In this document: positions 44,466 through 60,562 of the stretch, in pieces
Layout: the number at the start of each line of letters is the position of its first letter
How positions within the stretch are numbered: the stretch's first letter is position 1
NCBI RefSeq assembly: GCF_006715785.1
Contig: NZ_VFNX01000001.1
Coordinates: 496,001 to 560,000 of the forward strand
DNA from: Streptomyces puniciscabiei
GTDB lineage: Bacteria > Actinomycetota > Actinomycetes > Streptomycetales > Streptomycetaceae
Length of the DNA: 64,000 nt
Direction of reading: 5' to 3'
The notes under the pieces: generated by a model
Seen by the model: only the letters and a program-made list of their open reading frames with translations
Databases searched by the model: none
Told to the model about the DNA's origin: nothing
Translations under genes and position numbers: made by a program

Positions 44466-45449
44466 TCACTGAGTCCCAGGCAGGCAGGCTGCCCGGTTCT
44501 GGTCGAAGTGACTGTCTCTGCCGCCTTGCCGCACCAGTCGACCCATCCGGGCGGCTTCGGCTCGGGGCATGAGAGTCCACCTACCGTCGCTACGGCGCAA
44601 CGCGGCGGAGTGCCAGGGGGTCGTCCAGGCGTCGGGGGCGTCGAGGAGACGGATGCCGAATTTCCCGGTGCCGACGGGCTGGGGATGGATGGAGAGGCGT
44701 ACCGCGCGGGGGTGGTGTTCGGCGATCAGGGTGCCCCAGGCGCGGCTGCGCTGGATGACGCCGTAAGCGCGTTGTCGACATGCGCGTTGGAGGGCGGAGC
44801 GGGTGCCGGTCCAGTCGGCGGTGTCCTCGACGAGGAAGCGGGTGATGCCCCGGTAGAGGGCCAGGGCCTGTTCGTCGGCGCGGATCTCGGCCCGGAGTGC
44901 TTCCAGGGTGGGGGCGTAGCGCTCATGGATGTGGGTGCGTTTCGTGTCGTGCGGAAGGTCGCCGAGGACGTCGCGGAGATCGAAGACGGACAGTCTGTGG
45001 AGGCCCATCCGCCCTATCTGTATGCGTAGGTCGTCGGCGTAGGCGTCGATGTGGTCGTCGGGGACGCCGATGAGGTCGCCGAAGACGTGGCCGTCCGAGC
45101 AGATGATCAGACGGGCGCCGGGCGGGTAGATCCGCTCGATCTGGGTGCACAGGGTGTTCAGGAAGGTCAGGGAGAGGCGTTCGCCCTGGTCGGGGAGGTG
45201 ACCGAGGACCTTGGCCGGGTTGGGGGACTTACAAGGGAAGCCGGGCAGCGTGAAGACGATGTGAGCGCCGTCGCGTACGAAGGCGGCGATGCTGCGCAGC
45301 TGATGCGGGAACGCTTCCGCGGGAGCGGGGACGGGGGCGGGGGCGGGGGCGGGGGCGGGGGCGGTCGTGCGGTGGTGGGGCAGGAGCAGGTTCAGGATCT
45401 CGGTGGCGATGCTCGTGGGGAGGGTGTCCGGCGCGGTCGTCAGGGGCAT
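44466..45449 (-). CDS. isonitrile (isocyanide) synthase, PvcA/Dit1 family
   Basis: A 327-aa PvcA/Dit1-type enzyme. FPCKSPNPAKVLG (about 71-83), GERLSLTFLNTLC, ARLIICSDGHVFGDLIGV, TKRTHIHERYAPTLEALR, and the late AVRLSIHPQPVGTGKFGIRLL and WHSAALRRSDGRW are the ordered family motifs. These enzymes turn the amino group of Tyr or Trp into an isonitrile using ribulose 5-phosphate as carbon source. ATG 45449 has AGGAGG. The N-terminus has a Pro-Ala linker from a 6-bp repeat. Last gene of the exporter / amidotransferase / P450 / synthase set. The substrate, probably Tyr or Trp, is not proven. Confidence 0.92.
   Translation of the reverse strand: MPLTTAPDTLPTSIATEILNLLLPHHRTTAPAPAPAPAPVPAPAEAFPHQLRSIAAFVRDGAHIVFTLPGFPCKSPNPAKVLGHLPDQGERLSLTFLNTLCTQIERIYPPGARLIICSDGHVFGDLIGVPDDHIDAYADDLRIQIGRMGLHRLSVFDLRDVLGDLPHDTKRTHIHERYAPTLEALRAEIRADEQALALYRGITRFLVEDTADWTGTRSALQRACRQRAYGVIQRSRAWGTLIAEHHPRAVRLSIHPQPVGTGKFGIRLLDAPDAWTTPWHSAALRRSDGRWTLMPRAEAARMGRLVRQGGRDSHFDQNRAACLPGTQ
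45325..45363. repeat. GGGGGC hexanucleotide tandem repeat
   Basis: About six units of GGGGGC/GGGGAC, encoding an (Ala-Pro)n linker in the isonitrile synthase. Confidence 0.85.
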
Positions 45450-45598
45450 GTCGTCCTCCTGGGGTACGAGGGCGTACGAGGGCACGTCGACATGGCGCCG
45501 TGGCGGGAGGGGAAGCCAGGCGCCTGGGGTCAGTGGGCGTGGGTCAGCCGGGGCCGGGTCGGCTGGTGGGGCCGGACCCGGTCAGCGGTACGTCGGTG

Positions 45599-46861
45599 TC
45601 AGAGGCGGCGTTCGTAGCCGACGGGGAGGTGGTTGGTGCCACGGCCGAGGACGGCGGGGATCCACTCGATGTCCTCGTCTCTGACGGCCGGATGAAGGCC
45701 GGGCAGGCGGGCGAGGAGTACGCCAAGGGCGATCTGGAGTTCGGCGCGGGCGAGGGCGGCTCCGGGGCAGAAGTGGATGCCGTGGCCGAAGGCGAGGTGG
45801 GAGTTGGGCGAGCGATCGAAGTCCAGGGTGTCCGGGTCGGGGAAGCGGCGGGGGTCCCGGTTGGCCGCGCAGAGGGAGACGATCACGGAGTCGCCGCCGG
45901 GTACGCGCGTGCCGTGCAGATCGCTGTCCTTGTCGAAGAAGCGCCAGGTGGTGAGCTCGAAGGCACTGTCGTAGCGGAGGAGTTCCTCGACGGCGCGGGG
46001 CAGCAGGTCCGGGTTGTCGCGGAGCCGGGCGAGCTGGTCCGGGTTGCGGAACAGGGCGATCAGGGCTGTGGTGATCTGGTTGGTGACCGGCTCCTGGCCC
46101 GCGACGAGGAGCTGGAAGATCATCGAGTCCAGCTCCTCCTGCGACAGTTCGCGGCGGTCGCGGGCCACGACGAGGCGGCTGAGCAGGTCGTCGTCCCAGT
46201 GTTCACGCTTGTGGGCCACGACATCGGCGATGTAGCTCTGCAGGCCGTGCAGGCGGGCCTCGTAGAGGGGGCGGCCGGGGTCGGTGGGGCCGACCGGCTG
46301 GACGACCTTGCCCCAGTCGCGGTCGAAGCGGGCCGCGAGTTCCTTCGGGAGGCCGATGACTTCGGCGAGGACCTGGAAGGGGAACTGGGCGGCGAAGCCG
46401 GTGACGAGGTCCGCGGGGCCGTGCTCCGGCAGTGCGTCGACGAGGGCGTCGGCCAGTTCCTGGAAGCGGGGGCGGAGCTGCTCGATGCGGCGCGGGGTGA
46501 AGGCGTCCGTCACGAAGCGGCGCATCCGGGTGTGCTGGGGCGGGTCCTGATGAAGGAGGTGCACCTGGAGCTGGGAGTGCTGCGGCTCGGGCATGATCGA
46601 GGCGCGGGCGCGCCAGCGGTCGTTGCCACGGTCGTGGTTCTTGCCGAGGCGGTCGTCGTTCAGCGCGGCGTGGGCGGCGTCGTAGCCGGTGACGAGCCAG
46701 GCTTGGACGCCGCTGGGGAAGAGGACCCGGTGGACGGGGCCGGCCTCGCGCATCTGCCCGTACAGGGGGTAGGGGTTGGTCTTGTAGGGGCAGCCCATCA
46801 GCGGCACGGGGTCGGACAAGGTGTCGGGATCCGCGGCTGGATGCTGTTCCTGGAGGGTCAT
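45599..46861 (-). CDS. cytochrome P450 of the isonitrile cluster, atypical I-helix
   Basis: A 420-aa P450. Heme loop FGHGIHFCPGAALARAE with Cys365; K-helix EELLR about 292-296. The I-helix reads A254-G-Q-E-P-V259-T, so the usual Thr pair after the acid is replaced by Pro-Val; this alters proton delivery and suggests chemistry other than simple hydroxylation, such as radical phenol coupling. ATG 46861 has GAGGAG. The gene lies 11 bp from the amidotransferase gene and 149 bp before the synthase. No ferredoxin is encoded nearby. Confidence 0.92.
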   Translation of the reverse strand: MTLQEQHPAADPDTLSDPVPLMGCPYKTNPYPLYGQMREAGPVHRVLFPSGVQAWLVTGYDAAHAALNDDRLGKNHDRGNDRWRARASIMPEPQHSQLQVHLLHQDPPQHTRMRRFVTDAFTPRRIEQLRPRFQELADALVDALPEHGPADLVTGFAAQFPFQVLAEVIGLPKELAARFDRDWGKVVQPVGPTDPGRPLYEARLHGLQSYIADVVAHKREHWDDDLLSRLVVARDRRELSQEELDSMIFQLLVAGQEPVTNQITTALIALFRNPDQLARLRDNPDLLPRAVEELLRYDSAFELTTWRFFDKDSDLHGTRVPGGDSVIVSLCAANRDPRRFPDPDTLDFDRSPNSHLAFGHGIHFCPGAALARAELQIALGVLLARLPGLHPAVRDEDIEWIPAVLGRGTNHLPVGYERRL

Positions 46862-46872
46862 GGGGAGGCTCC

Positions 46873-48699
46873 TCAGAGGGCGAGTTCGGGCCGGTAGTGG
46901 TCCAGCCAGAGGGCGAGGTCGACGACGCGTTCGAGGCGCAGGCGGTGGCCCCACTGCAGTCGGTCGGGCGGGGTGTCGAGGCAGGGCTTGATGCGGGTCT
47001 CGTCGGCCAGGGCGCGGACCTGTTCGGTGGCGAGCGCGTCGCGGGCCAGATCCTGCAGGCCGCGGTTGTAGTCGGGGTGGTGGGTGGCCGGGTAGTGGTT
47101 CTTGGGCCGGTGCAGCACCGAGTCCGGAGCGAGGCCGGCGCCCATCGCGCGCAGCAGGCTCTTCTCCCGTCCGTCGAAGCTCTTCAGCGCCCACGGGGTG
47201 GTGAAGGCGTACTCGACGAGCCGGTGGTCGCAGTACGGGACGCGGACCTCCAGGCCCTGCGCCATGCTGAGGCGGTCCTTGCGGTGCAGGAGCTGGCGCA
47301 GCCAGCGGGTCAGGGACAGGTGCTGCATCTCGCGTTGGCGGTGTTCGGCGGCACTCTCGCCGTCCAGGTGCGGTACGGCGGCCAGCGCGGTGCGGTACGT
47401 GTCGTCGCGGAACTCACCGATACGCAGGTCCAGTTCCGGGTTCAGGGGCATGGCCGCCTCGTCGCCCGTCACCAGCAGCCACGGGAAGGTTTCCGCAGCG
47501 AGGGCCTTCGGGTTGTGGAACCAGGGGTAGCCGCCGAAGACCTCGTCGGCCGCCTCGCCGGAGAGGGCGACGGTGGAGTGCTTGCGGATCTCGCCGAACA
47601 GCAGGTACAGCGAGGTGTCCATGTCGCCGACACCGATGGGTGAGTCGCGGGCCACGACGACGGCCTTGCGGTGCTCCGGGTCGAGCAGGGCGCGCGGGTC
47701 GAGGACGACCGTGCTGTGGTCGGTGCCGATGAAGGCGCCGGCCTCGATGGCGTAGGGCGTGTCGTGGCCGGTGCGCAGGACGTCGCCGGTGAACTGTTCA
47801 GCCTGGTCGCTGTAGTCGACGGCGTAGGAGCGGATCCGGGCGTCCGGGCCTTCGCGCAGGCGGAGTTCGTCGGCGAGCAGGGCGGTCAGGACGGTGGAGT
47901 CGATGCCACCGGAGAGCAGGCTGCACAGCGGGACGTCCGCTTCGAGCTGGCTCCGGGCCGCGGCACCGACCAGGCTGCGGATCCGCTCGATGGCCGTGTC
48001 CTGGTCGCCGGTGTGGTCGGTAGCCTCCAGCTGCCAGTAGCGGCGTTCACGGATGCCGCCCCGGTCCAGCACGAGCACGCCGCCCGGCTCGACCTCCCTG
48101 ACTCCGGACCACACGGTCGGGCCGGTGTTGAACAGCAGGCTGTACGCCTCCCGCAGCCCGTCCGCGTCCACCCGGGGCCGTATCCCGGGGTGGGCGAACA
48201 GGGCCTTGGGCTCGGAGGCGAAGGCGAGGCCGCCGTCGACAGTGGCCCAGAACAGGGGCTTCACCCCGAGCCGGTCGCGGACCAGGAGCAGCCGCTGGGC
48301 GCCCTCGTCCCAGACGGCGAAGGCGAACATGCCCTCCAGGTGCTCGGCCACCGCCTCCCCCCACTCGGCGTACGCGCGCAGCACCACCTCGGTGTCGCTG
48401 CGCGTGCGGAACGCATGGCCCCGGGCGCGCAGTTCCGTGCGCAGTTGGTGGTGGTTGTAGACCTCGCCGCTGTAGCTGAGCACGATGACCGGCTGCTCGG
48501 GACGGTCGGTCATCGGCTGTATGCCGCCGTCGAGGTCGATGACGGCCAGGCGTCGGTGGCCGATGGCGGCCCTCTCGCCGATCCAGACGCCTCCGGCGTC
48601 GGGGCCCCGCGGGGTGAGGGTGGCGGTCATGGCCCCGATGACCGGGGCCTGGGTGCGGGCGTCCTGGTGGAAGGACGCCCAGCCGGTGATTCCGCACAT
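46873..48699 (-). CDS. asparagine-synthetase-like amidotransferase
   Basis: A 608-aa AsnB-type protein. N-terminal glutaminase with Cys2 (MCGITGW), RGPDAGG and SYSGEVYN; the C-terminal synthetase has PP-loop SGGIDST (263-269) and LSGEAADEVFGGYPWF, SMAQGLEVRVPYCDH. It should make amides from carboxylates with Gln and ATP. In an isonitrile cluster a carboxamide on the amino-acid-derived product is the likely result. It starts 17 bp after the MFS stop, so the three genes are co-transcribed. A housekeeping asparagine synthetase is less likely here. Confidence 0.9.
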   Translation of the reverse strand: MCGITGWASFHQDARTQAPVIGAMTATLTPRGPDAGGVWIGERAAIGHRRLAVIDLDGGIQPMTDRPEQPVIVLSYSGEVYNHHQLRTELRARGHAFRTRSDTEVVLRAYAEWGEAVAEHLEGMFAFAVWDEGAQRLLLVRDRLGVKPLFWATVDGGLAFASEPKALFAHPGIRPRVDADGLREAYSLLFNTGPTVWSGVREVEPGGVLVLDRGGIRERRYWQLEATDHTGDQDTAIERIRSLVGAAARSQLEADVPLCSLLSGGIDSTVLTALLADELRLREGPDARIRSYAVDYSDQAEQFTGDVLRTGHDTPYAIEAGAFIGTDHSTVVLDPRALLDPEHRKAVVVARDSPIGVGDMDTSLYLLFGEIRKHSTVALSGEAADEVFGGYPWFHNPKALAAETFPWLLVTGDEAAMPLNPELDLRIGEFRDDTYRTALAAVPHLDGESAAEHRQREMQHLSLTRWLRQLLHRKDRLSMAQGLEVRVPYCDHRLVEYAFTTPWALKSFDGREKSLLRAMGAGLAPDSVLHRPKNHYPATHHPDYNRGLQDLARDALATEQVRALADETRIKPCLDTPPDRLQWGHRLRLERVVDLALWLDHYRPELAL

Positions 48700-48716
48700 G
48701 GGAAACGACTCCTCGG

Positions 48717-50168
48717 TCAGTGGTGGTGGGCGGCGGGAGCCGCGTCGGTGGACATCTCGTGCGCGAGCGCCGGCCTGCGTCCTCGCAGTGCGAGCAGGGG
48801 TACGGCGATACCGGCGGCGGCTGCCGCCAGGGCCAGCCCGGCCGTCACGCCGTCATCGCCTCCGGCCAGACCCCAGGCTGCGGTGGCCAGGGCCGGGCCG
48901 AGGGTGAAGCCGAGACTGCGGGCCAGCTGTACGGAGGAGCCCACGGTCGCCGTGCGGTCCGCCGGGGCGGCGCCCATGACGAGAGCCTGGGTCGGGCCGC
49001 CGTTCAGGCCCATGCCGATACCTGCCAGCGCCAGCCGCCAGGCCACGTCCACCGGCGACCAGTCATCCCCCAGCGGAACGAGGAGGAGCAGACCGGCGGC
49101 GGTGAGAGCAGCCCCGATGACCGCCACCGGCCGGGCCCCGGTGGGGGTCCCCCCGCGCGAGCGGAGCCGAGCGTGGGGGATGTCGGCGAGGCGGCCACCG
49201 ACCGGCCCGGCCGCTGCCATGCCGAGCGGGAAGGCGAGCACGGTCAGACCGGTAGTGGTGGCGCTGACGCCGTCGTCGCGCTGGAGGTGCAGGGCGACGA
49301 CGTAGTGCATCGCCGCGAACCCGGCCGCCAGCGCCAGCACCGCCGTATGCGCCCGGAACAGCCCCGCCGCCCGCACTGCGCCGACGACCGGTCGGCCGCC
49401 CGGTCCCCGCAGCCACCACCACAACGGCGCTACGGCGGCAAGCCCGAGCACCAGCCACACCGGGCTTCCCGACGCCAGGGTCAGCGCAAGCAGCAGGGCG
49501 GCCACCCCGGAACCCACCAGCAGTGCGTCCGCCGCCGACCGCCGGTCGGGCAGGCGCAGGCCTCCGTCCCTCGGCATCGCCCTCCACGCCACGATCAGGG
49601 CGAGCAGGCAGAAAGGGATCTTGACGAGGAAGACGGCGCGCCAGCCCAGGTGGTCCAGCAGCAGTCCGCCCACCGCCGGACCGGTCACCGCGCCCAGCGG
49701 GCCCAGCGTCGCGGGCACGCTCATGGCCCGCCCGCGCAGTTCCGGCCGTACCGAACGCAGGGCGAGAACCGGCATCAGCACGAAGAGCACGGCCCCGAAC
49801 GCTCCCTGCGCGAGGCGGGCGGCGATCAGCCATGACGCCCAGGGCGCGGCGGCCGCCAGCGCGCTGCACAGACCGAAGCCCGCGGTCGCGACCAGCAGGG
49901 CGGAACGCATCCCGACCCCGTCCAGCCACCGGCCGACAGGCAACAGCAGGGCGACCACGGGCAGTTGATAACCAAGGACCGCCCACTGGGCGGCCGTGGC
50001 GGAGACGTGCAGACCGTCGGCGATGTCCGCCAGGGCCACGTTGACGATGTTCATGTCGAGCATCGCCACGAACGACAGCAGGCCGGCCACCGCAACGAGC
50101 AGCCAGCGGTCCTCACCGCCGACGGATATGTGGCCGGGCTGTTGAGAACCGGGACTGTGGCCTGTCAC
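48717..50168 (-). CDS. MFS exporter of the isonitrile cluster
   Basis: A 483-aa DHA2-type MFS transporter, about 14 helices: SFVAMLDMNIVNVALADIADGLHVSATAAQWAVLGYQLPVVALLLPVGRWLDGVGMRS (motif A region) and RTATVGSSVQLARSLGFTLGPAL. An inserted palindromic repeat (49143-49180) supplies the residues HARLRSRGGTPTG. GTG 50168 follows GAGGGG. First gene of the isonitrile operon, with an ECF-type promoter about 56 bp upstream; likely exports the isonitrile product. Confidence 0.9.
   Translation of the reverse strand: MTGHSPGSQQPGHISVGGEDRWLLVAVAGLLSFVAMLDMNIVNVALADIADGLHVSATAAQWAVLGYQLPVVALLLPVGRWLDGVGMRSALLVATAGFGLCSALAAAAPWASWLIAARLAQGAFGAVLFVLMPVLALRSVRPELRGRAMSVPATLGPLGAVTGPAVGGLLLDHLGWRAVFLVKIPFCLLALIVAWRAMPRDGGLRLPDRRSAADALLVGSGVAALLLALTLASGSPVWLVLGLAAVAPLWWWLRGPGGRPVVGAVRAAGLFRAHTAVLALAAGFAAMHYVVALHLQRDDGVSATTTGLTVLAFPLGMAAAGPVGGRLADIPHARLRSRGGTPTGARPVAVIGAALTAAGLLLLVPLGDDWSPVDVAWRLALAGIGMGLNGGPTQALVMGAAPADRTATVGSSVQLARSLGFTLGPALATAAWGLAGGDDGVTAGLALAAAAAGIAVPLLALRGRRPALAHEMSTDAAPAAHHH
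49143..49180. repeat. GC-rich palindromic interspersed repeat inside MFS gene
   Basis: GGGGGTCCCCCCGCGCGAG then CGGAGCCGAGCGTGGGGGA; the same family as 38505-38546 in reverse orientation. The coding frame is kept. Confidence 0.75.
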
Positions 50169-50223
50169 CGTTGCCGCCCCTCACGGTCGTGGGTGGGCTG
50201 CCGGACGGCAGCCTCGTCCCACA

Positions 50224-50251: not shown

Positions 50252-50271
50252 GGGCGCGTCCAAAAATCATG

Positions 50272-50694: not shown

Positions 50695-50722
50695 GGGAAC
50701 TCCGGGCTCCGCTCAGCCGACC
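50695..50722 (+). promoter_or_regulatory. ECF-type promoter of the copper chaperone
   Basis: GGGAACT, 16 bp, CGACC; ends about 87 bp before the chaperone start. It matches the minus-strand promoters of this region except for the last base of the -10 box. Confidence 0.8.
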
Positions 50723-50808: not shown

Positions 50809-51024
50809 ATGGACCAGAAGCAGTACAACGTCACGGGAATGAGCTGCGAGCACTGCGCGGCGAGCATCAGGGAAGAGGTCTCCGAGGTACCCGGGGTCAG
50901 CAAGGTCGTGGTCGACCTCGCCGCCAACGCCGTCACCGTGCACGGCACGGGCCTTGAGGACGAGCGGCTGCGCGCGGCGATCGTCGAGGCCGGGTACGGC
51001 ATCGCCGACTCGATCGCCGCCTGA
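50809..51024 (+). CDS. CopZ-like copper chaperone
   Basis: A 71-aa HMA-domain protein. GMSCEHCAASIREEVSEVPGVSKVVVDL has the MxCxxC metal motif and the betaalphabeta order of CopZ/Atx1. It carries Cu(I) to P-type ATPases or other targets. AGGAG precedes the ATG. The only plus-strand gene between the isonitrile operon and the importer, under its own ECF-type promoter. Confidence 0.93.
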   Translation: MDQKQYNVTGMSCEHCAASIREEVSEVPGVSKVVVDLAANAVTVHGTGLEDERLRAAIVEAGYGIADSIAA

Positions 51025-52978: not shown

Positions 52979-52980
52979 GA

Positions 52981-54060
52981 TCAGGCGACCTTGCCGGGGT
53001 AGAGGGTCTTGGCGATGGCCTCGACCGTGTCGGCGTTCCCGACTCCCGCGATGGTGGTCTGCTCGGAGCCGATGCGCAGGAAGTGGCCCTCCTCGACCGC
53101 CTTCAGGCCCTTGGTGGCGGGGTTCGACCTCAGCCACTGCTCGGCCTCGTCGAACGCCTTCTTGTTCGCCGCCTCGCTGCCGCGGTTGCGGACGCCGAGC
53201 TGGATCCAGTCGGGGTTCTTCGCGATCACGTCCTCCCAGCCGACCTGCTTGTAGTCGCCGTCGCAGTCGGCGAAGACGTTGCGGGCTCCGGCCAGGGTGA
53301 TCACGGCGTTGGCGATCTGGCGGTTGCAGGTGACGCTGGGCTGCTTGGTACCGGCGTCGTAGTCGAAGAAGAAGTACGTGGGCCGGTTGCTCTCCGCCGT
53401 ACCGCCGACCGCCTTCTGGACCGCGCCCGCCTTCTCCTTCATCCCGGCGACGAGTTTCTGCGCCTGCGCACTGGTGCCGGTGACGGCGCCAAGGGAGGTG
53501 ACATCGGCCTCGACAGCGGACAGATCGGTCACCGGGCTCTTGCTCCGGGCAGCACAGGCGGTGGACTTCAGGTAGATGTGCTTGATCCCGGCCGCCTTGA
53601 ACTCCTCCGCCGTCGGCGCGTCCCCCATGCCTCCGCCGCCCATGCTTCCCGTGGAGGCGAAGGTGTCGATGTAGAGGTCGGCTCCGGAGCCGAGCAGCTT
53701 CTCCTTGGGGATCACTGTCCGGCTGAGCACCTTGACCTTCTGCGCCTGTGCGTCGAGGGTGCCGGGCAGCGTGCCCTTGCCGGGCGGGAAGCCGGTGCCG
53801 ATCACCTGGTCGCCGGCGCCGAGGCGGAGCAGCAGCTCCAGGCTGGAGGCGTTGCTGGTGACGATTCTCTTCGGGGCGCCGGAGAAGGTGGTCCTGGCGC
53901 CCATGCAGTCGGTGACGGACACCGGGTAGCCACCGGAAGCCGCCTTCCCGGCCTGCCCCGCGTTACCGTCCGCCGTGTCCTTCCCCCCGCCGCCGCAGCC
54001 CGCCACCAGCAGGCCGCCCAGTACGACGGCCGCGGTACCGCCCCACACACGAGAACGCAT
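52981..54060 (-). CDS. metallophore ABC substrate-binding lipoprotein
   Basis: A 359-aa FecB/BtuF-type lipoprotein. Signal LGGLLVAGC (lipobox Cys), then the binding domain: PKRIVTSNASSLELLLRLGAGDQVIGTGFP ... GADLYIDTF ... WEDVIAKNPDWIQLGVR. It has the family's long central helix and two lobes. GGGAG precedes ATG 54060. First gene of the importer operon, with an ECF-type promoter 57 bp upstream. Its ligand is unknown; context suggests a copper-isonitrile complex. Confidence 0.9.
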   Translation of the reverse strand: MRSRVWGGTAAVVLGGLLVAGCGGGGKDTADGNAGQAGKAASGGYPVSVTDCMGARTTFSGAPKRIVTSNASSLELLLRLGAGDQVIGTGFPPGKGTLPGTLDAQAQKVKVLSRTVIPKEKLLGSGADLYIDTFASTGSMGGGGMGDAPTAEEFKAAGIKHIYLKSTACAARSKSPVTDLSAVEADVTSLGAVTGTSAQAQKLVAGMKEKAGAVQKAVGGTAESNRPTYFFFDYDAGTKQPSVTCNRQIANAVITLAGARNVFADCDGDYKQVGWEDVIAKNPDWIQLGVRNRGSEAANKKAFDEAEQWLRSNPATKGLKAVEEGHFLRIGSEQTTIAGVGNADTVEAIAKTLYPGKVA

Positions 54061-54116: not shown

Positions 54117-54144
54117 AGTCGGAGCGAAGGTGCCTCGAGTTCCC
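54117..54144 (-). promoter_or_regulatory. ECF-type promoter of the importer operon
   Basis: Minus strand GGGAACT, 16 bp, CGACT. It ends about 57 bp before the lipoprotein start. The bases after the -35 box (CG) are also shared with the MFS promoter. Confidence 0.82.
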
Positions 54145-54244: not shown

Positions 54245-54892
54245 TCAGGCCGCCAGCGCGGCGGGCCGGTCCTCCCCCACTGCCTTAACGGCGTGGGAGG
54301 TGCCCCCATCGTCCAACAGGTCCATCAGCGTTGCGCGGGCTCGGGCCACGCGGGAGCGGACCGTGCCGATCGGGCAGTCGCTCACCTCGGCGGCCTCCGC
54401 GTACGGCAGGCCGAGCAGCTGCGTGAGGGTGAACGCTTCCCGACGGTCATCGGGCAGCGACGCCAGCAGATCGAGCAGGGCGATGCCGTCGTCGAAGCCG
54501 GGCAGGTCGCACGGCTGGGCCAGCTCGATCGCCAACTGCCAGTCCGGTACGTCGGTCAGGCGGGGGCGGGCGGCGGCGTACCGGTAGCTGTCGATCACCG
54601 CTCGGCGGGCGATGGACAGCAGCCACGCCCGCGCCGAGGAACGCCCCTCGAACCGGTGCAGGCTGCTGAGGGCGCGCAGGAAGGTGTCCTGCGCGAGATC
54701 GTCCGCCGCCTGGGGATCGCCGCAGAGGTGGGCGACATAGCGCTGGACGTCCCGGTGCAGGGCGCGCACGAACTGCTCGACCGCGTGCGCGTCACCGCCT
54801 CGGGCGGCCAGCGCCCATGCGGTGATCGATTCGTCGGGCGCCGCCGGTTCGTAGTTCTTGGCGCGCGACGTGGGCAGGGCAGAGGTAATCAC
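54245..54892 (-). CDS. ECF sigma factor, SigC-like
   Basis: A 215-aa ECF sigma factor. Region 2: QAADDLAQDTFLRALSSLHRFEGRSSARAWLLSIARRAVIDSYR; region 4: LTQLLGLPYAEAAEVSDCPIGTVRSRVARARATL. It resembles SigC of Mycobacterium tuberculosis over the whole length, including SSAR-WLL-IAR and LLTQLLGL-YA-AA. No anti-sigma gene is next to it. GTG 54892 follows AAGGA. The C-terminal residues GGTSHAVKAVGEDRPA derive from a palindromic repeat (54271-54307). It probably recognises the GGGAACT-N16-CGACT promoters around it. Confidence 0.88.
   Translation of the reverse strand: MITSALPTSRAKNYEPAAPDESITAWALAARGGDAHAVEQFVRALHRDVQRYVAHLCGDPQAADDLAQDTFLRALSSLHRFEGRSSARAWLLSIARRAVIDSYRYAAARPRLTDVPDWQLAIELAQPCDLPGFDDGIALLDLLASLPDDRREAFTLTQLLGLPYAEAAEVSDCPIGTVRSRVARARATLMDLLDDGGTSHAVKAVGEDRPAALAA
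54271..54307. repeat. GC-rich palindromic repeat at the end of the sigma gene
   Basis: CCTCCCCCACTGCCTTAACG then GCGTGGGAGGTGCCCCC, an imperfect palindrome of a Streptomyces interspersed type, different in core from 38505 and 49143. It encodes the last residues of the sigma factor. Confidence 0.65.
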
Positions 54893-55071
54893 CTGGTGTC
54901 CTTCTCGGGTCAACCGTGATCCGGACCAGGGCACGCCGAAGCGCGCGGTCCGGTGAAAGTGGGAGGGACGGCCCTACGGCGTCGCTGTGGCGCTACAGCG
55001 CCTGTGCGGTCGTACGGCCGTGGCCCGAGGCGCGCACGGGCAGCCGGGCGGCCTCGGGAAGACAGCTGTCT

Positions 55072-55725
55072 TCAGGCGACAGCCGTTCCCACGGGCGGAC
55101 CCCGAGAAGTGATCGCATGGACGAGGAGGAGACGCGGCGCCCGGTCCGAGCGTCGGCGCCGCAGGTGGACGCGCGGGCGGTTCGGGGTGGCGGGCAGGGC
55201 GAGCAGCAACTGCAGCGGCGCCGCCAGCCATCCGGCCGCCGCCCGCAGGATCCGGAAGGCGGCCTTCTCGCCGTACGCCAGCCACAGGCCGCACAGCACC
55301 GCGGCGAGCAGGTGAGCGGCGAGCATGCCGGACGACGACGAACCGCCGTCCATGGAGTGCCCCATGTGATCCATGGGGCTGATGCCCGTGTGGTCCATAT
55401 GCAGGGCGCCCATGTCCATGGAGCCCATGCCGCTCATGCCCATGGAGGCCGAGCCGTCGGACGTGCCGGACGTCGACTGGGCGTAGGAGAACGCCTCGTG
55501 GAGCACCGTCTGGGCGGCGACCACGACCGTCACGATCAACGGCAGCCCGCGCTCACGCCCCGCCAGGCCCCAGCCCACGGCACCGGTCACGGCCCCGCCG
55601 GCGGCCAGCGCCCACGCCGGCACGTCGCTGCCGGACATCAGGACGTGGCCCAGGGCAGCGAGCAGCACGCACACGGCCGCGAACACCGCGGCCCGTGTCG
55701 CGCGAGCACACCACCCTGCCGTCAT
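55072..55725 (-). CDS. Met/His-rich membrane protein, paralogue 1
   Basis: A 217-aa membrane protein with about five helices. Between helices it carries a striking copper-ligand segment (MGMSGMGSMDMGALHMDHTGISPMDHMGHSMDGG). It shares AAVFA-LCVLLAALGH at the N-terminus and the GRER...LH-F pattern with the protein at 59903-60562. GAGG precedes ATG 55725. The family (DUF5134-like) is not characterised; copper storage or transport is inferred from composition and neighbours. Confidence 0.75.
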   Translation of the reverse strand: MTAGWCARATRAAVFAAVCVLLAALGHVLMSGSDVPAWALAAGGAVTGAVGWGLAGRERGLPLIVTVVVAAQTVLHEAFSYAQSTSGTSDGSASMGMSGMGSMDMGALHMDHTGISPMDHMGHSMDGGSSSSGMLAAHLLAAVLCGLWLAYGEKAAFRILRAAAGWLAAPLQLLLALPATPNRPRVHLRRRRSDRAPRLLLVHAITSRGPPVGTAVA

Positions 55726-55832
55726 GGTGCCTCATCCTCGCATCCGGGCTTCGGTCGTCATGCGTGGGTACGGACCTCCACGGGGGACCGTACTCAATCC
55801 GCAGGGTGTGATCCAGCCCACGACAACTGGCT

Positions 55833-55859
55833 GGAACTCGACGACAATCTGCCCCGACC
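55833..55859 (+). promoter_or_regulatory. orphan ECF-type box pair, plus strand
   Basis: GGAACT, 16 bp, CGACC on the plus strand between two minus-strand genes. It would read towards the end of the PCuAC gene in antisense. No plus-strand gene follows. Confidence 0.45.
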
Positions 55860-55876
55860 TCTAGGAGAGGACTCCT

Positions 55877-55891
55877 CCGCCCTCAGGGCGG
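55877..55891 (-). terminator. short hairpin after the PCuAC gene
   Basis: CCGCCC-TCA-GGGCGG, a perfect 6-bp stem just after the stop at 55896 (minus strand). Could stop both strands. Confidence 0.55.
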
Positions 55892-55895
55892 GCGA

Positions 55896-56417
55896 TCACG
55901 GACCGCTGTCGCTCGGGCGGATCACGACCGCGATCGTCTCGACCGGCGCGCTGCGCTCGAAGTGCAGCGTGAACGGTACAAGGTCACCCGCCCGCCAGTC
56001 GGCCCCGGCCCGCAGCGTCACGTCCACACCGCGCGGCGACATGGACAGCACACCGCCCGCAGGGACGCCGGCCGAGGTCACGTCCGTCTTGTACGCGGCC
56101 CGGCCGCCCAGCATGCGGTGCCCGCTGAGGGTGATCCGGCCGTGCGCGGCAGTGGACGTCACGTTCACCAGGCGGTCGTCCGCGCCACCGACGTTGGCGA
56201 TGTCGAAGAGCGCCGCGGTGTCCGTGCTGTTCCCGTACGGCAGGAGGACCCGCCCGTTCGAGACGGTGATCCGGGCCGGGCTGCCCGCCTTCCCGGCCCC
56301 GGCCCAGGTCGTCAGCCCTCCCAGGGCGAGGCTGCACGCGGCCACGGGCGCGAGCGCGGCGAGGAGGGTGTCGGTCAGCCGACGGCGAGTGGGTCGCCAG
56401 AGGTTCTGCTCGGTCAT
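55896..56417 (-). CDS. PCuAC-type periplasmic copper chaperone
   Basis: A 173-aa secreted protein. Signal or anchor helix: LLAALAPVAACSLALGGLTTWAG. ITVSNGRVLLPYGNSTDTAALFDIANVGGADDRLVNVTS and HRMLGG...MSPRGVDVTLRAG match the PCuAC domain, which delivers copper outside the membrane (for example to cytochrome oxidase). Some of the usual H(M)x10Mx21HxM ligands are changed or displaced. The start overlaps the ATPase stop by 4 bp (ATGA), so the two are translated together. Confidence 0.87.
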   Translation of the reverse strand: MTEQNLWRPTRRRLTDTLLAALAPVAACSLALGGLTTWAGAGKAGSPARITVSNGRVLLPYGNSTDTAALFDIANVGGADDRLVNVTSTAAHGRITLSGHRMLGGRAAYKTDVTSAGVPAGGVLSMSPRGVDVTLRAGADWRAGDLVPFTLHFERSAPVETIAVVIRPSDSGP

Positions 56418-58687
56418 CGGGTACGCCTCCGGGCGGGAGCGGGCGACGGCTGCCAGGCGCGCAGCCGCAGGCTGTTGCCCACGACCAGCAGCGAACTCAC
56501 CGACATCGCCGCCGCTGCGAGCATCGGATTGAGCAGGCCGACCATGGCGAGCGGCACGGTCACGACGTTGTAGCCGAAGGCCCAGACGAGGTTGGCCCGG
56601 ATCGTGCCCAGCGTGCGCCGGGCGAGCCGGACCGCGTCCGCCAACGCCTCGATGTCCCCGCGTACCAACGTCACGTCGGCGGCCCCGATGGCCACGTCCG
56701 TGCCGCTGCCCATGGCGATGCCCAGGTCGGCGCCGGCCAGGGCGGCGGCGTCGTTCACTCCGTCGCCGACGACCGCGACGCGGTAGCCCCGCTCCCGCAG
56801 GTCCCGTACGAGGTCGGCCTTGGCCTCGGGGGTGCAGCGGGCGTGCACCTCGTCGATGCCCAGGGCCGCGGCCACGGCCTGCGCGGGTGCCTCGCGGTCA
56901 CCGGTGGCGAGCACCGGCCGCACGCCGAGGCGCCGCAGCCGGTCCACCGCCCGGTAACTTCCGGGCCGTACGACGTCCCCGACATCGATCAGGGCCTCGG
57001 CCACGCCGTCCACCCGGACCAGGACGGGCGTGTGGGCGGCGGCCTCGGCCACCGACAGCGCGTCTGCCAGGGCGGTGGGCAACTCGCCGTCACAGGCGAG
57101 GACTTCCACCAGCCGGGCCTCGACCAGGCCGCGCACGCCCCGTCCCGGCACGGCGGCGAACTCGCTCACGTCCGGCAGCGGCCCCTCGGGGAGTTCCCGC
57201 CGGGCGTAGGAGGCGATCGCCCGGCCCAGGGGATGTTCCGAGCCGTGCTCGACGGCCCCGGCCAGCCGCAGCAGCGCCTCCCTGCCCAGTCCTTCGCGTA
57301 CGACCGTGACGCGGGCGACGGTCATGTGGCCGGAGGTGAGCGTGCCGGTCTTGTCCAGGACGACCGTGTCGATGTGCTGGAGCCCCTCCAGCGCCTGGGG
57401 TCCGCCGACCAGGACGCCCAGTTGGGCACCGCGGCCGGTCGCGGCCATCAGCGCGGTCGGCGTGGCCAGGCCGACCGCGCACGGGCAGGCCACGACGAGC
57501 ACGGCCACGCACGCGGTGACGGCGGCCTGCGGGTCGGCCCCGGCACCGAGCCAGAAACCGAGACAGGTGACGGCCAGCGCGAGCACGACGGGGACGAACA
57601 CCCCGGCCACCGTGTCGGCCAGCCGCTGCGCCCGTGCCTTGCCGGCCTGGGCCTCGGTCACCAGCCGGGTGATCCGGGCGAGCTGGGTGTCCGCGCCGAC
57701 GGCCGTGGCCTGCACCAGCAGCAGCCCGCCGGCGTTGACAGCGCCGCCGACCACCGCCGAACCCGGCCCGACCTCGACGGGCTCGCTCTCCCCGGTGACC
57801 AGGGACAGATCCACGGCCGAACTGCCCTCCACCACCTGCCCGTCGGTGGCCACCCGCTCCCCCGGCCGCACGACGAAGACCTGCCCCGGCCTCAACCACT
57901 CGATGGGAACGCGCCGTTCGTCGTCGCCTTCGCGGATCGTCACCTCTTTGGCGGCGAGTTGGGCCAGTGACCTGAGCGCCGCCCCGGTCCCGCGCCGGGC
58001 CCGCGCCTCCAGGAACCGCCCCGCCAGGACGAACAGCGGTACACCGACGGCGGCTTCGAGATAGAGGTGCGCCGCGCCGTCCGAAGCCGAGGGCACCAGA
58101 GTGAACGGCATCCGCATGCCGGGCTCCCCGGCACCGCCGAGGAAGAGCGCGTAGGCGGACCAGGAGAAGGACGCCACCACACCCAGCGACACCAGGGTGT
58201 CCATGGTCGCCGCCGCATGCCGAAGCCCACGCGCCGCCCGCACATGGAAGGGCAACGCACTCCAGACGGCGACCGGCGCGGCCAGCGCGAGGCACAGCCA
58301 CTGCCAGTTGCGGAACTGCAGCGCGGGCACCATCGACAGCACGAGCACGGGCACGGCGAGCAGAGCGGTGACCAGCAGCCGACTCCGCTCCTGGCGAGCG
58401 TCTTCGGGCTCGCCCGCGTCCTTGCCTTCCCCCGCCCCGGGCTGCTTGGGCGGCTCGGGCAGGGCAGCCGTGTAGCCGGCCTCCTCGACGGCGGCGACGA
58501 GTTCCCAGGGGCTGATCCGCGACGGGTGGCTCACCCGCGCTCGTCCGGTGGCCAGATTGACGGTCGCCGTGACCCCGTCCAGCCTGCCGAGCTTCTTCTC
58601 GACGCGCCTCACACAGGCCGCGCAGGTCATACCGCCGACGGTCAGGTCGGTCGTCACCAGGTCGACGGTCACCGGTTCCCCGCCCAT
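56414..58687 (-). CDS. copper P-type ATPase (CopA/CtpA-like)
   Basis: A 757-aa P1B-type ATPase. N-terminal HMA domain GGMTCAACVRRVEKKLG (CxxC about 22-25); six to eight helices; transmembrane metal site CPC in VVACPCAVGLATPTALMAATGRGA; phosphorylation site DKTGTLTSGH; GDGVNDAAAL hinge. The CPC motif marks Cu(I)/Ag(I) pumps. In the family, direction is outward. Coupled to the small protein before it (TGATG overlap at 58687) and PCuAC after it. It may load extracytoplasmic proteins rather than detoxify. Confidence 0.95.
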   Translation of the reverse strand: MGGEPVTVDLVTTDLTVGGMTCAACVRRVEKKLGRLDGVTATVNLATGRARVSHPSRISPWELVAAVEEAGYTAALPEPPKQPGAGEGKDAGEPEDARQERSRLLVTALLAVPVLVLSMVPALQFRNWQWLCLALAAPVAVWSALPFHVRAARGLRHAAATMDTLVSLGVVASFSWSAYALFLGGAGEPGMRMPFTLVPSASDGAAHLYLEAAVGVPLFVLAGRFLEARARRGTGAALRSLAQLAAKEVTIREGDDERRVPIEWLRPGQVFVVRPGERVATDGQVVEGSSAVDLSLVTGESEPVEVGPGSAVVGGAVNAGGLLLVQATAVGADTQLARITRLVTEAQAGKARAQRLADTVAGVFVPVVLALAVTCLGFWLGAGADPQAAVTACVAVLVVACPCAVGLATPTALMAATGRGAQLGVLVGGPQALEGLQHIDTVVLDKTGTLTSGHMTVARVTVVREGLGREALLRLAGAVEHGSEHPLGRAIASYARRELPEGPLPDVSEFAAVPGRGVRGLVEARLVEVLACDGELPTALADALSVAEAAAHTPVLVRVDGVAEALIDVGDVVRPGSYRAVDRLRRLGVRPVLATGDREAPAQAVAAALGIDEVHARCTPEAKADLVRDLRERGYRVAVVGDGVNDAAALAGADLGIAMGSGTDVAIGAADVTLVRGDIEALADAVRLARRTLGTIRANLVWAFGYNVVTVPLAMVGLLNPMLAAAAMSVSSLLVVGNSLRLRAWQPSPAPARRRTR

Positions 58688-58932
58688 CAGTGGCCGCCTC
58701 CGTGCATGTCCCCCATGTCGTCCGTGCCGCCGCCCCCGCCGGAATCGCCGCCCCCCCGGCTCGTGCCGGTGCCGTGCATGCCGGGCGCGACGGGCCCTGC
58801 GGCGACGCCGACGGCGTACGACACCGCGAACATCAGCGCCAGCAGGAGAAGGAATCCGCAGAGGGCGGGCGGAGGCACCAGCTTCCGCAACACCGCGCCC
58901 GCGCCGGAGAAGATGTGCCGGGACTTGTCCAT
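58687..58932 (-). CDS. small membrane protein with His/Met/Gly tail
   Basis: An 81-aa protein: one helix LCGFLLLLALMFAVSYAVGVAAG, then MHGTGTSRGGGDSGGGGGTDDMGDMHGGGH, a likely metal-binding tail on the outside. ATG 58932 is preceded by TTG 58935. First gene of the ATPase/PCuAC operon, with its stop overlapping the ATPase start. Confidence 0.8.
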   Translation of the reverse strand: MDKSRHIFSGAGAVLRKLVPPPALCGFLLLLALMFAVSYAVGVAAGPVAPGMHGTGTSRGGGDSGGGGGTDDMGDMHGGGH

Positions 58933-58992
58933 CAACCGCGTCTCCAGATCACGTCGTACGGCGTCGGTCGGATCGCGCCGTACCGCATCAGG

Positions 58993-59019
58993 AGTCGGGG
59001 CCGCCCGGGGTCGAGTTCC
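58993..59019 (-). promoter_or_regulatory. ECF-type promoter of the copper ATPase operon
   Basis: Minus strand GGAACT, 16 bp, CGACT; ends about 61 bp before the small membrane protein start. Confidence 0.78.
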
Positions 59020-59084
59020 GGAGCAAAGTTGTGGTCCGCGTCACGCGAGGGGCAACTGTGCCGGGGGGGCGCGCCGACGGAACA

Positions 59085-59117
59085 CTGCCCTGCCGACGGC
59101 TGTCGTCGGCAGGGCAG
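59085..59117 (-). terminator. hairpin after the YcnI-like gene
   Basis: CTGCCCTGCCGACG and CGTCGGCAGGGCAG form a perfect 14-bp stem with a short loop, just after the stop of the YcnI-like gene. Confidence 0.88.
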
Positions 59118-59122
59118 CTGCG

Positions 59123-59863
59123 CTACTCCGCCCGGGAGCCGGCGGAACGGCCGCGCACGACGGCAAAGCCCGCCGCGGCCAGGCCCAGCACCCCGGCGAC
59201 CAGCCCGGCGATGCCGAGACCGCGGGCGGTCGAGTCGCCGGCCGAGGCGGTCGACTTGGCGCTGTCGGAGCCCTTCGAACCCGCCGGCGAGACGGTCGAA
59301 GTGCCACCGCCGTCCTCCGTGCCCTTGGCGGTGAGCTTGAGCACGGGCGCCGGGTTCTCCGGCTCCTGGCCGCCCTGCGCCTCCTCGATCCAGCGGACGA
59401 TCTTGCCGTCGGAGTACGTCTGCAGGGTCTTGAAGGTCAGCCGGCCGGTGTCGTCGGGCAGCTGGCCGAAGGCTACGTTGAATTCCTCGTACTGGCCCGG
59501 CGCGATCTTGCCGCCGCTGAAGGTGATCTCGGAGACGGCGTCGGTGATGGTGCCGTCGTCGGTCTTGACGGGCGTCTTGAGCTTGGTGTTGGTGACCTGG
59601 GCGGTCCAGCCGTCCTGCGGGTGCACCAGCACGCCGAGGACAGGGTGGTCGGTGGGCAGGAAGACCTGGACCTTGGTGGTGGAGGCGTTGTCCTCCTCGT
59701 TGGGGACACGGAAGGTCAGCACGCCGTCGGTGGCGCCCTTGGCGTAGCTGTCGGGGTGGACGGTGACGTGCGCGGAGGCGACGCCCGCGGCAGCGAGGAG
59801 TCCGGCGGCGGTCAGGGCCGTGACGGCGCCGGCGCGGCGCAGGGTGGTGCGGGTCCTGGACAT
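59123..59863 (-). CDS. YcnI-like copper-binding protein (DUF1775)
   Basis: A 246-aa secreted, C-terminally anchored protein. The signal peptide ends ...AGVASA-HVTVHPDSY, so the mature protein begins with His, which is the copper ligand in YcnI. The beta domain with VTNTKLKTPV and EEFNVAFGQLPDDTG is DUF1775; a Ser/Thr linker and a C-terminal helix with RGRSA follow. Family members take part in copper homeostasis. It lies 39 bp after the membrane protein at 59903 on the same strand. Confidence 0.93.
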   Translation of the reverse strand: MSRTRTTLRRAGAVTALTAAGLLAAAGVASAHVTVHPDSYAKGATDGVLTFRVPNEEDNASTTKVQVFLPTDHPVLGVLVHPQDGWTAQVTNTKLKTPVKTDDGTITDAVSEITFSGGKIAPGQYEEFNVAFGQLPDDTGRLTFKTLQTYSDGKIVRWIEEAQGGQEPENPAPVLKLTAKGTEDGGGTSTVSPAGSKGSDSAKSTASAGDSTARGLGIAGLVAGVLGLAAAGFAVVRGRSAGSRAE

Positions 59864-59902
59864 GAGGTGAGGGATCTCCGTACGGAAGAAGGGATGTCGG
59901 GT

Positions 59903-60562
59903 TCAGATCGCGTACGACAGCGCGTACGACATCCCGGGCGGCGGCCCCCGCCGGTGAACGGCGTACCTCAGCCGCACCTGCCGCAACCCCCACGGCCCAC
60001 CGACAGCCCGACGCACCGGCCCTGGCCCGGCCGGCGCACGCCACGCCCCGCCGGCCACCCGCCACCAGGCGGCAAGCCCCGGCACGAACGCGACCGCCCA
60101 CCGCAGCAGTGACCACAGTGCCACCTCACCGCGCCGCAGCCACCAGGTCAGCAGCAGGGCCGCCCCGGCATGCGCGGCGGTGGCGTGCGGTGTCAGTGCA
60201 TGGGCCGCTTGGACCATCCGCATACCGTGCATGACCATCACGGCGTGAGGGGGCTCGGCGGCGTGGAAGACAAGGTGCAACCCGCCCTGGGCGGCCAGAG
60301 TCCCCGTGCCGATGGCGGCCGGCGACCGCTCACGGCCGCCCAGGAGGCAGCCCGCCGCGAAGACCGGCACGAACGAGGCGACCTGTACCCACACCGGTGG
60401 CGCCATGCCCGTGGCCATGGCATGCCCTCCGGCAGCGAGCAGCACGCACAGCACGGCGAACACCGCCGCGCGCACGCTCCGCACCGCCAGGGACACACTC
60501 ACGGCACCTGATGCTGCCACGCGTCCAAAGGATCTCTCCCCCGGCCCAGGCACACGCATCAC
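59903..60562 (-). CDS. His/Met-containing membrane protein, paralogue 2
   Basis: A 219-aa protein with about five helices, paralogous to 55072-55725 (AAVFAVLCVLLAAGGHA, GRERSPAAIG, LHLVFH). A loop contains HAVMVMHGMRMVQAAHALTPHATAAHAG. The start is uncertain: GTG 60562, ATG 60559 or an internal GTG near 60502. It is first in an operon with the YcnI-like gene, under an ECF-type promoter about 42 bp upstream. Function unknown; copper context. Confidence 0.72.
   Translation of the reverse strand: MMRVPGPGERSFGRVAASGAVSVSLAVRSVRAAVFAVLCVLLAAGGHAMATGMAPPVWVQVASFVPVFAAGCLLGGRERSPAAIGTGTLAAQGGLHLVFHAAEPPHAVMVMHGMRMVQAAHALTPHATAAHAGAALLLTWWLRRGEVALWSLLRWAVAFVPGLAAWWRVAGGAWRAPAGPGPVRRAVGGPWGLRQVRLRYAVHRRGPPPGMSYALSYAI

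What the first reader, a model, noticed from the sequence alone, without database searches (positions are those of the whole stretch)
44466..60562. Putative isonitrile chalkophore system joined to a copper-handling locus
A PvcA/Dit1-type isonitrile synthase, a P450, an AsnB-like amidotransferase and an MFS exporter lie next to a FecB/FecCD/FecE-type importer, a CopZ-like chaperone, a CopA-like ATPase, PCuAC, YcnI and three Met/His-rich membrane proteins. Isonitriles bind Cu(I) tightly; established examples are SF2768 in Streptomyces thioluteus, xanthocillin in Aspergillus and the nrp-dependent diisonitrile chalkophore of M. tuberculosis. The gene set supplies synthesis, export, uptake and intracellular or extracytoplasmic copper delivery. 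I know of no described Streptomyces system combining PvcA-type chemistry with this importer and SigC-like control.
Basis: partly seen in the sequence, partly recalled or inferred. Interest (0 to 1): 0.96.

Follow-up and report, generated by a model that had tools for sequence, protein, structure and literature searches.

The report
Isonitrile copper scavenger under SigC-like control
This Streptomyces locus carries genes predicted to make, export and take back an isonitrile that likely scavenges copper, and the same promoter-like sequence stands before its synthesis, uptake and copper-handling genes and also before a chemically different isonitrile pathway in other Streptomyces, which would put both under one likely copper-starvation switch.

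Summary
PvcA, P450, AsnB, MFS, FecB/CD/E, CopZ, ECF sigma, PCuAC-like, CopA and YcnI genes are all there and stay together: of 295 Streptomyces genomes, 45 have both the synthase and the orthologous binding protein, 3 the synthase only, 5 the binding protein only, 242 neither. Two different gene orders keep the same gene set.

[quoted passage not shown] I saw only its citation. PvcA + P450 + AsnB fits a hazimycin-type product (structure recalled).

One element, GGAACT-N15-CCGACT, precedes the MFS-AsnB-P450-PvcA operon, FecB, g58687-CopA and g59903-YcnI, and, with one mismatch, CopZ. Four of the genome's eight exact copies lie in this 10.4 kb. With at most one mismatch it precedes FecB in 33 of 37 loci, at 15-nt spacing only. 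Thirteen of 17 copper-linked NRPS-isonitrile loci carry it exactly, against none of 15 unlinked ones. The likely reader is the SigC-like ECF sigma factor; that, the copper signal and the product are untested.

The parts
44466..45485 (-). PvcA/Dit1-type isonitrile synthase, last gene of the synthesis operon
   Evidence: DIT1_PvcA 258.6 bits; PDB 3e59 PvcA, E 7e-82, aligned over residues 17-328; NCBIfam tyrosine isonitrile synthase is the only family matched but below cut-off, 280.6 of 600
45599..46867 (-). Cytochrome P450, predicted phenol-coupling enzyme; start placed at MTLQEQ
   Evidence: PF00067; FGHGIHFCPG haem-ligand motif read from the translation
46873..48699 (-). AsnB-like glutamine amidotransferase, predicted from its operon to turn the isonitrile carboxylate into an amide
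   Evidence: Asn_synthase 277.8 bits and GATase_7; scores over the cut-off of the general asparagine synthase model TIGR01536, 460 bits; Cys2 present
48717..50168 (-). MFS exporter, first gene of the synthesis operon
   Evidence: MFS_1 181.2 bits
50224..50250 (-). Promoter-like element GGAACT-N15-CCGACT of the MFS-AsnB-P450-PvcA operon, 56 nt before the MFS start
   Evidence: Exact match; distance
50696..50722 (+). The same element with one mismatch, 87 nt before CopZ
   Evidence: site with at most one mismatch before CopZ in 9 of 9 genomes whose CopZ start could be placed
50809..51024 (+). CopZ-like HMA copper chaperone
   Evidence: HMA 61.1 bits; kept in 9 of 29 type-A loci
51090..51905 (-). 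FecE-type ABC ATPase (start approximate)
   Evidence: ABC_tran 111.1 bits at residues 328-472 of the open frame 51090-52823
51905..52987 (-). FecCD-type permease (start approximate)
   Evidence: FecCD 313.2 bits
52981..54060 (-). FecB-type binding lipoprotein, predicted receptor for the copper-isonitrile complex
   Evidence: Peripla_BP_2 58.4 bits; lipobox LLVAGC read from the translation
54117..54143 (-). Promoter-like element of the importer operon, 57 nt before FecB
   Evidence: Exact match; site with at most one mismatch in 25 of 29 type-A genomes, 24 of them at 55-59 nt
54245..54934 (-). SigC-like ECF sigma factor, predicted reader of the element
   Evidence: Sigma70_r2 and Sigma70_r4_2; PDB 2o7g (SigC) best, 2o8x (SigC) fourth
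55072..55725 (-). Met/His-rich membrane protein coded next to this ECF gene; candidate copper sensor or transporter
   Evidence: No Pfam or NCBIfam family; invariant C19, H27, M30, H76, M134, H138 in 55 sequences; beside the ECF gene in 20 of 20 fetched loci from genomes without a PvcA match
55896..56417 (-). Membrane-anchored PCuAC-domain protein
   Evidence: PCuAC 52.9 bits; of its Met/His positions only M126 is invariant in 50 sequences, H100 and M102 in about two thirds
56414..58687 (-). CopA-type P1B ATPase
   Evidence: TIGR01511 489 bits, over cut-off; CPC and CxxC motifs read from the translation
58687..58935 (-). Small Met/His-rich membrane protein
   Evidence: 82 aa, one hydrophobic stretch; kept in 19 of 29 type-A loci
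58993..59019 (-). Promoter-like element of the g58687-CopA-PCuAC group, 58 nt before g58687
   Evidence: Exact match; 12 of 14 placeable loci have it exactly
59123..59863 (-). YcnI/DUF1775 protein
   Evidence: DUF1775 163.2 bits
59903..60562 (-). Second Met/His membrane protein, paralogue of 55072-55725
   Evidence: 46% identity over 76 aa
60604..60630 (-). Promoter-like element of g59903-YcnI
   Evidence: Exact match, 42 nt before g59903; 2 of 2 placeable loci

Best explanation
This locus is a predicted hazimycin-type isonitrile chalkophore system that likely scavenges copper, and its synthesis, uptake and copper-handling gene groups carry one shared promoter-like element, GGAACT-N15-CCGACT, predicted to be read by the SigC-like ECF sigma factor encoded among them. 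Shown by sequence: the genes, their co-conservation in two different orders, the element, its fixed spacing and its positions. Inferred: PvcA makes the tyrosine isonitrile, the P450 couples two units, AsnB amidates the carboxylates, the MFS protein exports the product, and FecB/FecCD/FecE take back the copper complex. Inferred: copper shortage activates the ECF factor, perhaps through the Met/His-rich membrane protein coded just upstream of it; CopZ, CopA, the PCuAC-like protein and YcnI then move the copper to where it is used. Outside this window the same element stands in copper-linked NRPS-type isonitrile loci, so one switch likely serves two unrelated chemistries.
For: Families. Co-occurrence of synthase and FecB orthologue in 295 genomes: 45 both, 3 synthase only (one of these, G003, has a partial FecB), 5 FecB only, 242 neither. 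Two gene orders with one gene set: type A 29 loci, type B 13, one of another order, five without the importer in the stretch examined. Element: 8 exact copies in 9.15 Mb, 4 in this locus, binomial 1.2e-10. Site with at most one mismatch before FecB in 33 of 37 loci, MFS 19 of 23, g58687 12 of 14, CopZ 9 of 9; permuted elements average at most 0.01 per set; of spacers 12-18, only 15 gives sites, apart from 2 at 18 before CopZ. ECF: SigC is the best solved relative; all 48 PvcA+ genomes have an ECF homologue, against 163 of 247 others, p 3e-8 (counted by hand; test). NRPS-type loci: 24 exact sites in 17 copper-linked loci against 0.02 expected, and 0 in 15 unlinked loci; L265 shows TauD, FcoT, ligase, NRPS and FecB. 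Precedent: M. tuberculosis SigC induces the nrp chalkophore operon and ctpB (PMC7924339, passages).
Against: No expression, copper or product data. The element does not precede the ECF gene (0 of 8) or the Met/His gene (0 of 21), so no autoregulation ties the ECF factor to it. GGAAC is a common ECF -35 (recalled), so another ECF factor could read the site; a different ECF factor, SigG1 (ECF56), is reported to act on a copA/copZ efflux locus in S. tsukubaensis (PMC7730460, passages). Thirteen of 20 ECF-only loci have no exact site in the fetched stretch. Type-B CopA groups have no site of their own (0 of 14 genomes, 8 of them with a g58687 match). Five of 48 PvcA loci show neither importer nor copper genes, though one of these stretches is only 2 kb. 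A CopA exporter under copper shortage is counter-intuitive, though SigC-ctpB is a parallel. The AsnB protein fits the general asparagine synthase model, so amidation of the isonitrile rests on its operon only. The relatives are not independent samples, so the p values are too small.
Confidence: 0.74

Rival explanations
1. The element is a real shared promoter, but it is read by another ECF sigma factor or answers a different signal; the neighbouring SigC-like gene is only a genomic companion.
For: No element before the ECF gene itself; Streptomyces have many ECF factors with GGAAC-type -35 elements (recalled); another ECF factor, SigG1, is reported to act on copA/copZ in S. tsukubaensis (PMC7730460, passages); weak genome-wide contrast.
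Against: All 48 PvcA+ genomes have an ECF homologue, against 163 of 247 others; the ECF gene sits inside both gene orders and in 14 of 17 copper-linked NRPS loci but none of the 15 unlinked ones (three of the 17 stretches were placed off-centre towards known hits); M. tuberculosis SigC has comparable targets.
Confidence: 0.2
2. The isonitrile is a weapon that poisons copper enzymes of rivals, and the copper genes protect the producer; the regulon answers copper excess or the product, not copper shortage.
For: Isonitriles have antimicrobial activity (PMC11290450, start of abstract in a search listing); CopA and CopZ are detoxification proteins in most bacteria (established knowledge), and ECF-controlled copA/copZ efflux is reported in S. 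tsukubaensis (PMC7730460, passages).
Against: A dedicated FecB/CD/E importer under the same element; four genomes keep the importer and its element without a PvcA match, which fits uptake as the benefit; SigC acts in copper shortage in M. tuberculosis.
Confidence: 0.12
3. The product is another tyrosine or tryptophan isonitrile (a xanthocillin-like or monomeric compound), so the copper role is right but the hazimycin label is wrong.
For: The PvcA protein is below the NCBIfam tyrosine cut-off and AsnB fits the general asparagine synthase model; AsnB is missing in 10 of 13 type-B loci, so products likely vary across the family.
Against: The window has AsnB with Cys2 intact in the operon and no PvcB-like gene among its four genes, which fits a carboxamide product as recalled for hazimycin; AsnB is kept in 28 of 29 type-A loci.
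Confidence: 0.25

Closest known systems
Hazimycin biosynthesis / actinobacterial chalkophores (Matsuda et al. 2024, J. Antibiot. 77:228; seen only as a citation in PMC11085572)
   Same: The title names hazimycins as actinobacterial chalkophores; from recall a PvcA-type diisonitrile with importer and exporter genes around the synthesis genes, in Kitasatospora and two Streptomyces, with wide distribution
   Different: I could not read the paper, so I cannot say whether it notes the ECF gene, the copper operons or a promoter element
M. tuberculosis SigC (ECF36) with the nrp chalkophore operon and ctpB (PMC7924339, PMC9600254 and PMC8999054, passages)
   Same: SigC-like sigma factor, isonitrile chalkophore genes and a copper P-type ATPase under one control
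   Different: Chemistry: NRPS-type diisonitrile lipopeptide there, PvcA-type here; I did not compare the M. tuberculosis promoter sequences
SF2768 of Streptomyces thioluteus (NRPS diisonitrile chalkophore; described in PMC9600254, passages)
   Same: Isonitrile copper uptake in Streptomyces; NRPS-type loci with FecB and the same element occur in this genus
   Different: No PvcA; TauD, FcoT, ligase and NRPS enzymes make the isonitrile
SigG1-RsfG of S. tsukubaensis (ECF56; PMC7730460, passages)
   Same: An ECF sigma factor linked to a CopA/CopZ locus in Streptomyces, also without autoregulation
   Different: Another ECF group with a C-terminal extension; proposed role is copper efflux and tolerance, no chalkophore mentioned (0 occurrences of the word)
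PvcA of Pseudomonas (PDB 3e59)
   Same: Isonitrile synthase homologous over residues 17-328
   Different: That pathway has other partners and is not joined to copper operons (recalled)

Membership tests
PvcA/Dit1 isonitrile synthases | DIT1_PvcA domain over the Pfam cut-off, essentially full length | tested here: met
   258.6 bits against 26.4, profile 1-267 of 273
Tyrosine isonitrile synthase (NCBIfam equivalog) | Score over the NF045653 cut-off | tested here: not met
   280.6 against 600 bits; substrate therefore not settled
Hazimycin-type chalkophore clusters | PvcA + P450 + amidotransferase with exporter and importer around them (definition partly recalled) | tested here: met
   All present; the paper could not be read
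Hazimycin-type chalkophore clusters | Production of a copper-binding diisonitrile | not testable with these tools
   Needs LC-MS and copper-binding assays
SigC (NCBIfam PRK09649 equivalog) | Score over cut-off | tested here: not met
   171.5 against 219 bits, though it is the best of 85 models matched
SigC-type copper-starvation sigma factors (functional) | Directs transcription of chalkophore and copper ATPase genes when copper is short | tested here: inconclusive
   Shared element before those genes; no expression data
PCuAC copper chaperones | Canonical H(M)x10Mx21HxM copper motif (recalled) | tested here: not met
   Domain present, but of the Met/His positions only M126 is invariant in 50 sequences
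P1B copper ATPases (CopA) | TIGR01511 over cut-off, CPC motif | tested here: met
   489.2 against 397 bits; ACPCAVG in the translation
NRPS-type isonitrile chalkophores | FcoT-family thioesterase with TauD, ligase and NRPS | tested here: not met
   No FcoT match in the window's genome

The most novel reading that the evidence does not exclude
Streptomyces share one copper-starvation switch, a SigC-like ECF sigma factor paired with a new family of Met/His-rich membrane copper sensors reading GGAACT-N15-CCGACT, into which two chemically unrelated isonitrile pathways (PvcA-type and NRPS-type) were plugged independently; some species keep only the importer with its switch site and live as chalkophore cheats.
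Probability: 0.5. Interest if true: 0.78.

Novelty: new member of a known kind. Interest (0 to 1): 0.6.

Why it matters
The gene cluster itself is a further member of the hazimycin-type chalkophores. The regulatory finding goes further: it gives a concrete, testable promoter for copper-starvation control in Streptomyces, would link two different isonitrile chemistries to one switch, offers a safe soil model for the SigC chalkophore control known from M. tuberculosis, and could let genome miners tell copper-uptake isonitrile clusters from others by a 27-base element. It also points to an unannotated membrane protein family as a candidate copper sensor or transporter, and to importer-only species as candidate cheats.

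Tried and rejected
Chance neighbourhood was rejected: co-occurrence p 1e-43 if genomes were independent, which they are not, and two gene orders with one gene set.

Autoregulation of the ECF gene by the element was not supported: 0 of 8 upstream of the ECF gene, 0 of 21 upstream of the Met/His gene.

A genome-wide excess of the element was not found: with up to one mismatch it occurs 77 times in the own genome against 112 for the reversed control. The signal is local, in exact copies and upstream positions.

The structure of the Met/His protein was predicted with mean pLDDT 65.4 and pTM 0.37; too weak for a fold search, so none was run. PADLOC gave nothing for four unplaced proteins.

A search for FcoT clusters outside Streptomyces (108 genomes of the class) found none and is uninformative, since its control genomes did not ring either. 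A paper search for the SigC promoter consensus listed two papers on other sigma factors, which I did not read, so the M. tuberculosis promoters were not compared. A search for isocyanide clusters in Kitasatospora found no paper.
Full report
What is there. All run on the minus strand except CopZ. In reading order: g59903-YcnI; g58687-CopA-PCuAC; the Met/His membrane protein g55072; the ECF sigma factor; FecB-FecCD-FecE; MFS-AsnB-P450-PvcA.

Co-conservation. In 295 Streptomyces genomes, PvcA matches at E 1e-20 in 61. Forty-eight have a match of at least 370 bits; the other 13 are distant, broken or fragmentary. FecB matches in 81; 50 have at least 400 bits. The cuts were set after seeing the tables: the weakest full-length FecB orthologue has 401.6 bits, the next full-length match 191 bits; partial copies were left out. 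Both are present in 45 genomes, synthase only in 3 (G003, which has a partial FecB, G032 and G058), FecB only in 5, neither in 242.

Two gene orders. I fetched about 20 kb around PvcA in 47 genomes plus 20.5 kb of the window; five stretches are shorter, one of them 2 kb, because the contig ends. Type A (29 loci) has the window's order; AsnB in 28 of 29, MFS in 28, ECF in 20, CopA in 21. Type B (13 loci) has P450-PvcA next to an oppositely directed importer on one side and CopA-PCuAC with ECF-g55072 on the other; AsnB in 3 of 13, ECF in 11, CopA in 11. One locus has another order. Five have no importer in the stretch and no copper gene; three of these genomes have FecB elsewhere (G280 about 750 kb away, G196 about 34 kb away, G001 on another contig). 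Over all 48: FecB 43, CopA 33, ECF 32, and the Met/His gene in all 32 ECF loci. Kitasatospora loci from the named collection also have the importer on the other side (L048, L049, L052). The same set in different orders speaks for function rather than inherited neighbourhood.

The promoter element. Reading the upstream regions showed GGAACT-N15-CCGACT before four gene groups. In the whole genome there are eight exact copies, four of them here (binomial 1.2e-10). A one-mismatch copy precedes CopZ. In loci whose gene starts could be placed, a site with at most one mismatch lies within 200 nt upstream of FecB in 33 of 37, MFS in 19 of 23, g58687 in 12 of 14, CopZ in 9 of 9 and g59903 in 2 of 2 (the 37 include the broken-PvcA genome G090 and a second stretch of G196). 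Two hundred permuted elements average at most 0.01 per set. Of spacers 12 to 18 only 15 gives sites, apart from 2 at 18 before CopZ. In type-A loci 24 of the 25 FecB sites lie 55-59 nt from the start codon. Negative results: none before the ECF gene (0 of 8), g55072 (0 of 21), PCuAC (0 of 11), CopA (0 of 16), FecE (0 of 44), PvcA (0 of 15) or YcnI (0 of 2), one of 32 before AsnB, 4 of 31 before P450. In a wider scan the P450 sites belong to type B, where P450 leads its operon (11 of 14), and none is type A (0 of 29). These fit operon-internal genes, but also show that the ECF gene is not autoregulated by this element.

The sigma factor. Its closest solved relative is the first domain of M. tuberculosis SigC (2o7g, E 1.5e-24; next chain 4.4e-16); the second SigC domain (2o8x, 8.4e-16) ranks fourth, behind two SigH-type chains matched over both domains. 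The best of 85 NCBIfam models is SigC, below its cut-off. PMC8999054 (passages) places SigC in group ECF36 and in its table of ECF factors without an anti-sigma factor. PMC7924339 (passages) reports that SigC induction raises the nrp chalkophore operon and ctpB. The ECF homologue is widespread, 211 of 295 genomes, and present in all 48 PvcA+ genomes (hand count; test). In 20 fetched ECF loci from genomes without a PvcA match, the Met/His gene is beside it in 20 of 20; 7 of these 20 hold exact elements, 13 sites against 0.03 expected, and 13 hold none.

A second chemistry on the same switch. FcoT, a marker of NRPS-type isonitrile clusters, matches over its cut-off in 26 of 295 genomes at 32 places; I fetched all 32. 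Seventeen have FecCD or CopA homologues in the fetched stretch; 14 of these 17 also have the ECF gene, and none of the other 15 does. Three of the 17 stretches (L264, L267, L274) were placed off-centre towards ECF or Met/His hits already known, which favours the ECF count there. Exact elements: 24 sites in 13 of the 17 against 0.02 expected, and none in the 15 (Fisher 7e-6). With one mismatch allowed, 2 of the 15 also show sites before open frames (L270, L287). L265 shows an oxygenase-like gene (PF05118), MFS, a carrier domain, TauD, FcoT, ligase, NRPS with reductase, FecB and an ABC ATPase by Pfam; its FecCD was seen by tblastn (48%), while the open frame I sent to Pfam there gave no family. 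CopA-PCuAC-g55072-ECF lie upstream, and exact elements stand before the first gene and before FecB. So the element marks copper-linked isonitrile clusters of either chemistry.

Importer without synthase. Four genomes (G106, G213, G223, G235) have the orthologous importer and no PvcA match at E 1e-20; all four keep the element before FecB, two exactly and two with one mismatch. G223 also has NRPS-type FcoT loci. G090 has PvcA in two pieces in different frames. These are candidate users of other species' chalkophore.

Product. PvcA + P450 + AsnB without a PvcB-like gene in the operon fits a coupled tyrosine isonitrile carrying carboxamides, the structure I recall for hazimycin. By sequence alone AsnB fits the general asparagine synthase model. 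Matsuda et al. 2024 has 'Actinobacterial chalkophores' and 'hazimycins' in its title; I saw only the citation, and the paper is not held. The sigma-factor link may be new: searches listed no paper that I could recognise as reporting SigC-like control of an isonitrile locus in Streptomyces, but that library misses most subscription journals. One listed paper, on SigG1 of S. tsukubaensis, links another ECF group to copA/copZ efflux and does not contain the words chalkophore or isonitrile (PMC7730460, passages).

Limits. No expression, binding or product data. The genome-wide contrast between ECF+ and ECF- genomes is weak and was done on 100 of 295. Relatives are not independent. The roles of the Met/His proteins, the copper signal and the direction of response are inferred.

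Noticed in passing
55072-55725 and 59903-60562: An unannotated Met/His-rich membrane protein family; homologues of 55072-55725 match in 286 of 295 Streptomyces genomes, with invariant Cys, His and Met residues in 55 sequences; no Pfam or NCBIfam model.
   Followed up: partly
L112, L113, L114, L115: Importer-only genomes that keep the FecB orthologue and its promoter-like element but have no PvcA match: candidate chalkophore cheats.
   Followed up: partly
L116-L121: Only a C-terminal scrap of PvcA is found in six genomes (G243, G101, G117, G169, G148, G033). In L116 and L117 it lies about 426 bases from a homologue of the window's 61732-62529 frame, as if the whole locus between them had been lost.
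   Followed up: partly
L014 and L018: Two Archangium (myxobacteria) contigs encode PvcA 75-77% and P450 86-88% identical to the window's, without the rest of the locus in the 20 kb held: likely transfer between phyla.
   Followed up: no
55833-55859: A one-mismatch copy of the element on the + strand between PCuAC and the Met/His gene; no gene that I recognise follows on that strand.
   Followed up: no
31313-43085: An unrelated set: P450-reductase fusion, alcohol dehydrogenase, TetR, glyoxalase, FAA hydrolase, FAD hydroxylase, acyl-CoA synthetase, probably aromatic degradation.
   Followed up: no
55896-56417: The PCuAC-domain protein has a hydrophobic N-terminal stretch and does not keep the canonical copper motif (recalled) across 50 sequences, so its copper role is doubtful.
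   Followed up: partly
L129 around 6075-7202: In an ECF locus without PvcA, an exact element lies between the ECF gene and a different FecE-like ATPase (50% identical): perhaps another metallophore importer on the same switch.
   Followed up: no
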